Source: Ahrensia sp.
Lineage (GTDB): Bacteria > Pseudomonadota > Alphaproteobacteria > Rhizobiales > Rhizobiaceae
Reading direction: 5' to 3'
Length of the DNA: 64,000 nucleotides
Assembly (NCBI GenBank): GCA_002698425.1
Contig: NZXU01000065.1
Span: forward strand, 1 to 64,000
The notes under the pieces are model-generated. The model worked only from the letters and a program-made list of their open reading frames with translations, was not told where the DNA came from and made no database searches. A program made the position numbers and the translations under genes. This document shows, in pieces, positions 30,146 through 32,918 of this stretch (the stretch's first letter is position 1; the number at the start of each line of letters is the position of its first letter).

Positions 30146-31138
30146 TCATTGCAGGATCACCGGAAGCTCAAGCGTGGCCAGTTCGCTCAGGGAACCGTCC
30201 GCATTCAGCTGGTGGACGAGCACGAATGCCATTTCGCCCTCGATGACGACCTCGGCAAATCCATCGACCACCATCGGACGGTCCAGTCCTCCCGAATCCG
30301 TATCGCAACCCCGGCTGGTCATCAAGCCGCCGGAGATGCAGACGTCGATTGCAAAGGCATCGGGGCTACCCGTGCCGCTGCCTTCCGAGCCTGTCCAGCC
30401 CGTGCCGCTGCCTTCGGAAGTCGGGCTGCCGGTGCCGCTGCCCTCGGAACTCGTCCATCCGGTGCCGCTGCCTTCGGAGTCCAGCCGGCCGGTGCCGCTA
30501 CCCTCGGAAAACGGCTTGCCGGTACCGCTGCCTTCGGATGCAACCCGGCCCGTGCCGCTGCCCTCGGAATCGAGCCGTCCCGTGCCGCTACCCTCGGAAT
30601 CCGGTCGCCCGGTACCGCTGCCCTCGGAATCCGGGCGTCCCGTACCGCTGCCTTCGGAGAACGGGCTGCCGGTGCCGCTGCCCTCGGAACCCGGACGGCC
30701 CGTGCCGCTGCCTTCGGAAAACGGACTGCCGGTGCCGCTGCCTTCCGACATCGGGTTCAGCGCGGCAAAACGCCGATCGAGTTGACGGGCGTCGATGATC
30801 TTCATGGGAATCGCCGAGTAGCCTTCGAACACCGCGGCCTGGCCGGAGCTCGAGAACATCGCGTTGTTGATCGAAATGGTGGCCTGCTCACCTTCGACGA
30901 TCACGTAGCCGGAGACTCTTTCCTGAGCCACGGAAGCGGTCGCCATGCTCATCGCCAGCAGCATCACGGCGCTCGAAATCGCACGCATTCCGGTTCCGTT
31001 CTTTTCGACCAGCGCCCTCAGGCCACCGCGCCTGCGTATGCCCGTTCCGCTCTTCTCGACTCCCGTAGAGCCGACCTCGGCCATTTGAATTCCGGTTCCG
31101 TTCTTCTCGATCATTGGGGTTCCTTTAACAGCACTCAT
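30146..31138 (-). CDS. Exported SEGSGTG-repeat protein (unknown function)
   Basis: The product is unrecognised. From the first ATG it has 330 aa. Residues 10-16, 27-33 and 44-50 are three copies of a motif [IV]EK[NS]GTG. Residues 51-72 look like a Sec signal peptide (MRAISSAVMLLAMSMATASVAQ, shown as MRAISSAVMLLAM and ATASVAQ). A globular part (73-130) follows. Then residues 131-260 are thirteen exact-register 10-residue repeats, SEGSGTG plus three variable residues (SPF, RPG, RPD, RLD, RVA, KPF, WTS and others). A 70-residue C-terminal domain has two cysteines. AAGGAG precedes the first ATG; a second start at residue 9 also has AAAGGA, and residue 51 is a third possibility. It lies 3 nt after the DUF6502 gene. 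Confidence 0.75.
   Translation of the reverse strand: MSAVKGTPMIEKNGTGIQMAEVGSTGVEKSGTGIRRRGGLRALVEKNGTGMRAISSAVMLLAMSMATASVAQERVSGYVIVEGEQATISINNAMFSSSGQAAVFEGYSAIPMKIIDARQLDRRFAALNPMSEGSGTGSPFSEGSGTGRPGSEGSGTGSPFSEGSGTGRPDSEGSGTGRPDSEGSGTGRLDSEGSGTGRVASEGSGTGKPFSEGSGTGRLDSEGSGTGWTSSEGSGTGSPTSEGSGTGWTGSEGSGTGSPDAFAIDVCISGGLMTSRGCDTDSGGLDRPMVVDGFAEVVIEGEMAFVLVHQLNADGSLSELATLELPVILQ
30359..30748 (-). repeat. Thirteen 30-bp tandem repeats inside the SEGSGTG gene
   Basis: The array encodes SEGSGTGxxx thirteen times without a break. Seven codons are nearly invariant and three vary, chiefly in the positions encoding R/S/W/K-P/L/T-x. Because of the base composition the opposite strand is also open across the array (PVPLPSE repeats), which is a shadow. 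Confidence 0.95.
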
Positions 31139-31141
31139 TGC

Positions 31142-32020
31142 CTACTTCTCCTTTCCGTTGGCCACGGAAACAGCGTTTTTTTCCGGCTTGTCGCCAAAGG
31201 CGAACCAGCCGATTCCATAGGTGCATACACCTGACTCATGCTCATCGACTTCGTACTCGTCGATGATTTCTTCAATTTCTACGATCTGGCGTTCGATCAC
31301 CTCTCGAACACGAGCGCTGAGCTCGATGTACTTCGATCGAGGAATCTTTCTCGACCAGCGATCCTGCTGCAGCAGCCGGTCCTTGTTGCTGTCTCGATTG
31401 AGGTTGTAGCCGATCGTTTCGGTCAGACGACCGATCGAAAGCGAACCGGCGTCGATGATGGTCTGCTCGGACGCCTTGACCGGCTGGTAGTACGGGCTGA
31501 CCAGTCGGACAAATTCGTCTTCCTCGATTTCGACATTGCCCGACTCGAGAAGGCGTTCGAGTACGGTCTGATAAGTCACGTTGCGCCCGATGGTGGAACT
31601 CACCAGGCTCTGGAAGGACTTCGACTTGCCCATGATCGGCAAGATGCGCGGCTCTCCGGCAGTGTCCTGGAATTCGGGATTCGAGGTCCAGCGATACAGC
31701 ACGCCCGCCTCTGCGCAAAGATCGCCGACAGTGCAGTCTTCCGGACTGGCCCCCTGCGATTCGATTGCGGAAATCGTTCGGGTATCCAGCCCGGACAGCA
31801 TTGCCAGCTTCGACTTGGTCACGCGGCCGTGATGGTCGTTCTTCTCGATCCAGCGGCGCGCCTCCTCTATGTAGATCCGTTTTATCTGCTGAATCAGAAA
31901 GCCGCAGGAGATTCGACCGACGATCAACCTCACGAAGGGTCTTATGACGCGCTCGATCGCCGACGCAAGACGCGCCCCCTGATCGTGTTGCGACTGCGGT
32001 GCAGTATTTGTCACGGACAT
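31142..32020 (-). CDS. DUF6502 family protein, possible DNA-binding regulator
   Basis: The 292-aa product fits the DUF6502 family pattern. The N-terminus (about 20-70) has a basic helix, IRPFVRLIVGRISCGFLIQQIKRIYIEEA (cited as VRLIVGRISCGFLIQQIK), followed by VTKSKLAMLSGLDTRTISAIE at about 67-87, which resembles a helix-turn-helix. The rest is mostly helical with a conserved central GTIGRNVTYQTVLERLLESG-like segment (STIGRNVTYQTVLERLLESG). There is no signal peptide, so it is cytoplasmic. AAGGAG lies ten bases upstream. It sits 18 nt after the EAL gene and 3 nt before the repeat gene, suggesting it controls or serves the exported protein; this is inference. Confidence 0.72.
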   Translation of the reverse strand: MSVTNTAPQSQHDQGARLASAIERVIRPFVRLIVGRISCGFLIQQIKRIYIEEARRWIEKNDHHGRVTKSKLAMLSGLDTRTISAIESQGASPEDCTVGDLCAEAGVLYRWTSNPEFQDTAGEPRILPIMGKSKSFQSLVSSTIGRNVTYQTVLERLLESGNVEIEEDEFVRLVSPYYQPVKASEQTIIDAGSLSIGRLTETIGYNLNRDSNKDRLLQQDRWSRKIPRSKYIELSARVREVIERQIVEIEEIIDEYEVDEHESGVCTYGIGWFAFGDKPEKNAVSVANGKEK

Positions 32021-32038
32021 TTGAGTGATTCTCCTTCC

Positions 32039-32785
32039 TTAAACCCGGGCTTCTTCCAGGACCAGTTCCGGGCGACTGTAGTGAAAACCCTGAATCCATT
32101 CGATACCGATCTGGCGAACGACACGCGCCTGGGACGCGGTCTCGACCCCTTCGGCCACCAGGACCACATCTGTCTGTTCGGCCATTGCCTGGAGACCCTG
32201 GATCAGCCTCGTGTAACCGGACTGGACATCGGCGAAGCGGACGATGCTTCTGTCAAGCTTGACGAAATCGATCAGTTTCGACGCGATCAGGTCAAGGTTG
32301 GAAAACCCCGGCCCGAAATCATCCAGCGCAAAACGAATGCCGTCGTTGCGTAGTTCCTCTATGGAAGAGCGAGAAGCCATGAGGTTGACCGGCCCGCCGA
32401 ACTCCACGAGCTCCAGGATCAATCGCGTCGGCTCGATCCCGCGCGCGTCGAGCTCGGTGCGGACGTAATCGACGAACCGCTCCCGGTGCAGCGAACTGGG
32501 GTGGATGTTGACGCTGAACCACGTCGTATCGGCAAGCTGCTCGACCGAGTCCAGGCAGCGGCTGAATATGTCCTGGTCGAACAGCAGTCCCCGACGCCTG
32601 TATCCCTGCTCGACGAAATCCAGCGGCGGCAAATGAAGCATGTCGCCGTGACCGCGAACCAGGAACTCGATCCACTCGTGCGACTGGGGCGACACCGATC
32701 GACAGATGTGCTGCACTGCCATCCGGCAAGGCAGCGCCTGTGAATCGACGCTCAAGATGTGGTGTTCGGGTGTCGGCGCAATCAT
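32039..32785 (-). CDS. Stand-alone EAL-domain protein (c-di-GMP phosphodiesterase type)
   Basis: A 248-aa single EAL domain with no sensory partner. The signature residues for c-di-GMP hydrolysis appear conserved: the EAL position reads EFLVRG near residue 30, then VNIHPSSL (Asn), ILELVE (Glu), ALDDFGPGFSNL (Asp-Asp), FVKLDRSIV (Lys), LVAEGVET (Glu) and IQGFHYSRP (Gln). An earlier ATG at 32815 would add ten residues, but it overlaps the -10 of the proximal promoter, whereas the chosen ATG has AAGGA seven bases upstream. It is first in the three-gene operon. Confidence 0.85.
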   Translation of the reverse strand: MIAPTPEHHILSVDSQALPCRMAVQHICRSVSPQSHEWIEFLVRGHGDMLHLPPLDFVEQGYRRRGLLFDQDIFSRCLDSVEQLADTTWFSVNIHPSSLHRERFVDYVRTELDARGIEPTRLILELVEFGGPVNLMASRSSIEELRNDGIRFALDDFGPGFSNLDLIASKLIDFVKLDRSIVRFADVQSGYTRLIQGLQAMAEQTDVVLVAEGVETASQARVVRQIGIEWIQGFHYSRPELVLEEARV

Positions 32786-32811
32786 TTCCACTTCCTTGCT
32801 CTCTGCGTTAG

Positions 32812-32918
32812 ACATTAATGCGGTTAGCCTTGAATGTCAATATCCATTTTTGGCTAAAACTGCATTCGAAGCCACAGTAATGCGTTCAGCCATCTTTGTC
32901 AATAGCCATTTTTGTCTA
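32812..32918 (-). promoter_or_regulatory. Duplicated promoter of the EAL operon (two 41-bp direct repeats)
   Basis: Two gap-free 41-bp direct repeats, 32816-32856 and 32878-32918, agree at 33 of 41 positions and are offset by 62 bp, close to six helical turns. On the minus strand each carries TTGACA with a 17-nt spacer to TAATGT (proximal, -10 at 32812-32817) or TACTGT (distal, -10 at 32874-32879). The region is AT-rich compared with its surroundings. Two promoters, or a promoter plus a duplicated regulator site, are possible. Confidence 0.65.

What the first reader, a model, noticed from the sequence alone, without database searches (positions are those of the whole stretch)
30146..32918. 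Three-gene operon: EAL phosphodiesterase, DUF6502 protein, exported SEGSGTG-repeat protein
Three minus-strand genes are packed with 18-nt and 3-nt gaps, have a promoter at one end and an intrinsic terminator at the other, and none has an assigned pathway. A stand-alone EAL domain keeps the catalytic residues; the middle protein has a helix-turn-helix-like segment; the last gene encodes a signal-peptide protein with thirteen SEGSGTGxxx repeats. A c-di-GMP-linked regulatory cassette controlling an exported repeat protein is a reasonable hypothesis. The gene products are read from sequence; the linked function is inference.
Basis: partly seen in the sequence, partly recalled or inferred. Interest (0 to 1): 0.72.

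Follow-up and report, generated by a model that had tools for sequence, protein, structure and literature searches.

The report
HetR-like regulator with repeated peptide motif
Three bacterial genes look like a self-regulating switch in which a DNA-binding protein resembling HetR, the cyanobacterial cell-patterning regulator, sits beside an exported protein carrying many copies of a short peptide motif that may be its signal.

The parts
32903..32918 (-). operator unit 1, TAGACAAAAATGGCTA (0 mismatches to TAGMCA-N4-TGKCTA)
   Evidence: element conserved upstream of DUF6502 operons
32887..32902 (-). operator unit 2, TTGACAAAGATGGCTG (2 mismatches); contains a TTGACA -35-like box
32841..32856 (-). 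operator unit 3, TAGCCAAAAATGGATA (1 mismatch); starts the second copy of the 62-bp near-duplicate
32825..32840 (-). operator unit 4, TTGACATTCAAGGCTA (2 mismatches); contains the second TTGACA box, TAATGT at 32817-32812
32039..32815 (-). stand-alone EAL c-di-GMP phosphodiesterase (start probably the ATG at 32785)
   Evidence: Pfam EAL 3.4e-36; eight catalytic-type residues present
31142..32020 (-). DUF6502 protein: HetR-like transcription factor (predicted)
   Evidence: PF20112; HetR best fold match; profile match to HetR above decoys
30146..31138 (-). exported double-repeat protein, proposed multi-copy peptide-ligand precursor
30986..31111 (-). pre-signal repeat zone: EKNGTGI, EKSGTGI, EKNGTGM (within residues 10-51)
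   Evidence: pre-signal motifs kept in homologues
30926..30985 (-). signal-peptide-like hydrophobic stretch (residues 52-71), S-V-A before Q72
   Evidence: sequence, by eye
30368..30748 (-). thirteen SEGSGTGxxx repeats in the exported part, low-confidence and without secondary structure in the model
29996..30023 (-). intrinsic-terminator-like hairpin with T-run

Best explanation
The operon is an autoregulated peptide-sensing module that works like HetR with PatS/PatX. Steps supported by computation: DUF6502 has an N-terminal HTH, a winged-helix-like middle and a helical hood-like end, and its predicted fold matches HetR over the whole length. Many operons of its subfamily carry a palindromic element TAGMCA-N4-TGKCTA upstream. 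The gene directly behind DUF6502 usually encodes an exported protein with a G-[TS]-G peptide motif, and that motif is conserved as protein. Inferred steps: DUF6502 binds the palindromes as a dimer and controls its own operon. The motif (pre-signal E-K-x-G-T-G-I; exported x-G-S/T-G-x) is bound by DUF6502's C-terminal hood, as RG[S/T]GR is by HetR's, and changes its DNA binding. The pre-signal copies stay in the cytosol when the signal peptide is removed and report on the producing cell's own output; the exported copies act as a store or signal outside the inner membrane. In the window's family and several others an EAL enzyme encoded just upstream ties the switch to c-di-GMP; in family f8 it is missing and arrays of operators lie upstream.
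Confidence: 0.6

Rival explanations
1. Regulator plus structural repeat protein: DUF6502 is a HetR-like transcription factor that controls its operon, but the GTG repeats are only a flexible surface, matrix or adhesin segment with no ligand role.
For: Repeats are low-confidence and without secondary structure between two confident beta halves; repeat number and spacer length vary among homologues, as in matrix proteins.
Against: Motifs also sit before the signal stretch, where a surface segment would be useless, in 41 of 53 loci; the motif recurs in unrelated partners (eight sequence groups of carriers) and in small proteins without visible signal peptide at 4 of 70 loci; it follows DUF6502 adjacency inside the DUF5666 family.
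Confidence: 0.18
2. The GTG motif is a sorting, processing or modification tag read by cell-envelope machinery, and DUF6502 merely regulates the tagged substrate.
For: In DUF5666-type partners the motif lies close behind the lipobox; short shared motifs on unrelated exported proteins are typical of sorting tags (general knowledge).
Against: In the window's family many copies precede the signal stretch, on the cytosolic side (189 such motifs in 41 proteins); the gene tied to the motif is a predicted DNA-binding protein. I did not search for a processing enzyme.
Confidence: 0.1
3. One reading: a c-di-GMP cassette in which the EAL enzyme is the main control of the exported repeat protein.
For: An EAL gene lies upstream at 24 of 34 subfamily loci outside family f8 and at seven loci of other DUF6502 types; 20 of 31 keep all eight catalytic-type residues, the rest showing gaps in the cut extract, except that the fragment L019 also differs.
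Against: 0 of 19 f8 loci have it, although DUF6502, repeat gene and operators stay; in many relatives the loop DDFGxGxS is changed to DDFGSRLN-like forms, although not in the window.
Confidence: 0.12

Closest known systems
HetR (heterocyst master regulator of cyanobacteria; Pfam PF03574 and PF18460; PDB 4izz, 4j00, 4yrv, 4hri)
   Same: Whole-length fold match with N-terminal HTH; hood-like helix-strand-helix-strand order as I read it; autoregulation proposed from the operators; genetic link to an exported protein with a G-[ST]-G peptide.
   Different: 8-13% identity over the structural alignments of those four; no Pfam HetR hit listed; PatS-contact acids mostly not conserved; palindrome TAGMCA-N4-TGKCTA instead of GGG-N5-CCC; found in gammaproteobacteria.
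PatX and PatS (RG[S/T]GR peptide precursors)
   Same: PatX is Sec-exported and carries HRGTGR (PMC12756182, passages read); the pentapeptide is the only feature PatS, PatX and HetN share (PMC7761841, passages read); here too a G-[TS]-G motif is what unrelated partners share.
   Different: Here usually tandem copies on both sides of the signal peptide, no flanking arginines, and a folded beta domain around the exported repeats.
DUF6502 (PF20112) beside DUF5666 (PF18914) lipoproteins
   Same: Same regulator family and gene order, with a GGIGGTGI-type motif behind the lipobox.
   Different: Single or few motifs and different partner domains; both families bear unknown-function names in Pfam.
Stand-alone EAL phosphodiesterases (YahA and others)
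   Same: EAL domain with the catalytic-type residues.
   Different: Operon context with DUF6502.

Membership tests
HetR | match to Pfam HetR models PF03574 / PF18460 | tested here: not met
   no HetR model among the families listed for 51 DUF6502 proteins at E<=10 (25 of 36 families shown); PF03574 over cut-off in 0 of 41 genomes
HetR | HetR overall fold | tested here: met
HetR | detectable sequence-profile relation | tested here: met
   hhalign E 4e-4 to 7e-5, scores 34-37 against decoy maxima of 24.3 and 20.3; one-pair E-values, probabilities 34-64%, confident in the flap-hood part only
HetR | PatS-contact residues R223, E253, E254, D256, D270, D278 | tested here: not met
   alignment printed: only D278 falls on an acid; register uncertain
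HetR | DNA binding and its release by RG[S/T]GR peptide | not testable with these tools
   needs EMSA or ITC
PatS/PatX | RG[S/T]GR pentapeptide | tested here: not met
   the motif is x-G-[TS]-G-x without both arginines
PatS/PatX | exported precursor linked to a HetR-type regulator | tested here: met
   46 of 53 subfamily loci; signal peptides by hydrophobicity and eye only
DUF6502 (PF20112) | Pfam score above cut-off | tested here: met
   47 bits, cut-off 27
EAL phosphodiesterase | EAL domain with catalytic residues | tested here: met
   E50, N103, E135, D165, D166, K186, E222, Q242 invariant in 7 aligned genes; that these are the catalytic positions is recalled
EAL phosphodiesterase | c-di-GMP hydrolysis | not testable with these tools
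   needs an enzyme assay

The most novel reading that the evidence does not exclude
DUF6502 proteins are a large proteobacterial class of peptide receptors and transcription factors related to HetR, and their exported partners are multi-copy pheromone precursors. Signal-peptide removal would leave an EKxGTGI-repeat fragment in the producer's cytosol as a count of its own export, while the exported repeats are cut into a signal for neighbours, so that the chemistry behind heterocyst patterning would be an instance of a widespread bacterial system.
Probability: 0.3. Interest if true: 0.97.

Novelty: new variant of a known kind. Interest (0 to 1): 0.87.

Why it matters
HetR and its G-[ST]-G peptides are a well-known case of a bacterial Turing-type pattern, and the papers I looked at treat the system as cyanobacterial. 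A counterpart in gammaproteobacteria would give two domains of unknown function (DUF6502, and DUF5666 as a partner) a testable role, name a ligand motif and a DNA site, and open the origin of the HetR system to comparison. The predictions (one palindrome, a few short peptides, one purified protein) are quick to test.

Full report
OBSERVATION. The three minus-strand genes and their spacing are as described, with Pfam support for EAL and DUF6502 and none for the repeat protein. Homologues keep this layout: 26 proteins were found and aligned, with pre-signal motifs, signal stretch, a first beta half, the exported repeats, and a closing FAEIAxNGxxASVLxY...ELAxLELPV. The model gives confident beta strands at 77-116 and 290-329 (block pLDDT 83-94 for residues 81-120 and 291-330) and low confidence for the pre-signal zone and repeats.

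SOURCE. The window's own assembly is not held; the nearest held genome shares 57% of sampled words (message). The closest named relatives are Wenzhouxiangellaceae. In G006 the same divergent MFS gene, promoter and EAL gene are present (EAL 76%, MFS 86% identity) and the contig ends just behind EAL, so the absence of DUF6502 there is not evidence of loss.

LINKAGE TO THE EXPORTED GENE. A profile of the DUF6502 subfamily was searched in 398 genomes of the order (96 with a match at E<=1e-12) and 369 of the class (95 with a match). Neighbourhoods came from the loci listed requested regions; they are top-scoring, not random. Of 120 DUF6502 genes distinct in their last 60 residues, 55 score 240 bits or more; 53 of these have at least 400 nt downstream. 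Directly behind, 41 of 53 have motifs both before and after the hydrophobic stretch; five more have a reduced or cut form (L153, L133, L143, L147, L051); seven have none (L032, L084, L144, L017, L024, L154, L023) (L143 and L051 read).

LINKAGE TO EAL. With a profile from seven aligned EAL genes, an EAL gene is found within 1.4 kb upstream at 24 of 53 subfamily loci with at least 500 nt upstream, 0 of 19 of them in family f8 and 24 of 34 outside it, and at 3 of 18 middle and 4 of 45 distant DUF6502 loci. At eight catalytic-type positions 20 of 31 keep all residues; the others show gaps in the cut extract, except that the fragment L019 also differs. Many relatives have a changed loop (DDFGSRLN instead of DDFGPGFS, which the window keeps).

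THE MOTIF GOES BEYOND ONE FAMILY. Of 44 distant DUF6502 genes with room, 30 had an exported-like gene behind them by my criterion; 28 of 30 carry G[TS]G (26 GTG), against 11 of 32 (4 GTG) exported-like control genes from 20 regions of 20 kb. The middle group gives 5 of 6, the subfamily 33 of 33 by the same criterion. The motif carriers fall in eight sequence groups (three non-carriers were dropped beforehand), with DUF5666 in 17 of 33 and fn3 (3), Calx-beta (2) or carboxypeptidase-regulatory (2) domains in others. The strongest control is within DUF5666: directly behind DUF6502, 19 of 19 carry G[TS]G in the 45 residues before the first GFGS-type element; paralogues without DUF6502 directly upstream, 4 of 12; Fisher P 6e-5; one undetermined. 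In L218, L219 and L248 the paralogue ahead of DUF6502 lacks the motif and the one behind has it; against this, two of six paralogues ahead of a DUF6502 (L183, L202) carry it. At 4 of 70 loci, all family f8 (L123, L126, L040, L128), a small protein without visible signal peptide with one E-[KR]-x-G-T-G motif lies ahead of DUF6502; 2 of 2408 control ORFs hold such a motif. In 41 proteins (the window's included) the 189 pre-signal motifs are nearly all [EG]-[KR]-x-G-[TS]-G-I (I in 168).

SELECTION IS ON THE PEPTIDE. Neighbouring units with identical amino acids differ at synonymous positions in 85 of 97 pre-signal pairs and 239 of 287 exported pairs.

WHAT IS KNOWN OF HETR. PatS6 binds a lateral cleft of the hood, forms main-chain bonds with beta 3, and its arginines are held by E253, D270 and D278; it binds with Kd 12 nM and releases DNA; the HetR site is GGG-N5-CCC (PMC4649674; abstract, start of the introduction, sections 5 and 6 read). 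PatX is Sec-exported, carries HRGTGR and is matured by the peptidase PatP (PMC12756182, passages read). [quoted passage not shown] c-di-GMP matters for heterocyst development (PMC8682488, search listing only). In the profile alignment E253, E254, D256 and D270 fall on W222, S223, K225 and R239, R223 on I188, and D278 on D254. So the arginine-gripping acids are mostly absent, as are the arginines in the motif. This fits a changed ligand but does not show one; the register there is uncertain.

OPERATORS. The 62-bp near-duplicate upstream of EAL contains four 16-bp units of TAGMCA-N4-TGKCTA within two mismatches, the only ones on the minus strand of the 64-kb window. A matrix from the window's two copies scores 25.4 and 23.0 upstream of EAL in G002 and G005 and 13.8 in G004 (0 of 1240 control chunks as high) and 12.2 in W. 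sediminis (5 of 1240 as high); directly ahead of the DUF6502 start itself only 2 of 53 loci pass a matrix of four sites, the promoter being ahead of EAL or another gene. A seven-site model searched in 12 genomes (at most 150 candidates scored in each) gives eight hits at E<=1e-4, all at this operon type; three are outside the training set (two tandem sites in G006, one in G015). Weak hits in G054 and G008:C415 also lie upstream of DUF6502; the other weak hits, apart from opposite-strand or neighbouring hits at the same sites, do not. G001, G003 and G016 gave none, though G016 has a DUF6502 with a motif partner. Half-site clusters (4 or more TAGMC/GKCTA in 120 nt) occur within 1 kb upstream of 20 of 53 subfamily genes, 1 of 18 of the middle group and 0 of 45 distant ones, against 0 of 380 control windows. 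Nineteen of the 20 are arrays of 6-10 half-sites in family f8. No wide regulon is suggested, as the strong hits are at the operon itself.

VERDICT. The most likely mechanism is autoregulation by a HetR-like repressor or activator whose ligand is the G-[TS]-G peptide of its own operon's exported product, with c-di-GMP turnover by the EAL enzyme as a companion in the window's family and some others but not in f8. Shown by computation: gene order, motif linkage, protein-level selection, conserved operators, fold match. Inferred: DNA binding by DUF6502, peptide binding, direction of regulation, cell-to-cell role.

Noticed in passing
G008, for example L158-L162: One genome of the family carries 18 DUF6502 matches, several followed by small 119-150-aa exported-looking proteins with a single G[TS]G motif: an apparent expansion of regulator-partner pairs.
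   Followed up: partly
L032 / G005:C25 and L154 / G004:C1: Near the relatives of the window's MFS transporter gene (32957-34321) G005 and G004 have a DUF6502 copy with no exported partner, while the EAL-DUF6502-repeat operon lies elsewhere in those genomes.
   Followed up: partly
L017, L023, L024, L144: DUF6502-subfamily genes with no exported G[TS]G partner; in L017, L023, L024 and L056 (same place as L144) the upstream ORF looks, by eye, like a short-chain dehydrogenase.
   Followed up: no
L123, L124, L131, L133, L135 (contig ends): Several contigs end inside or just behind the repeat gene, as expected if the repeats break assemblies, so the gene is probably under-counted in draft genomes.
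   Followed up: no
L002 with L294, L005 with L293: A second DUF6502 type in the genus also has an EAL gene 60-70 nt upstream; in L002 the large exported partner has a VGTG motif.
   Followed up: partly
EAL loci, for example L034, L020, L082: Many EAL neighbours of DUF6502 keep the catalytic-type residues but have a changed DDFG loop (DDFGSRLN), which may mean altered activity or regulation.
   Followed up: no
window 34345-34374: Short 14-bp tandem repeat (ACTTGACACTTAAA, 2.1 copies) between the MFS gene and uvrB.
   Followed up: no
L141 and L139: Partners in two further families also start with tandem motifs (SESEGTGIS; IEQAGTGSIERTGTG), so N-terminal repeats are not confined to the window's relatives.
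   Followed up: partly
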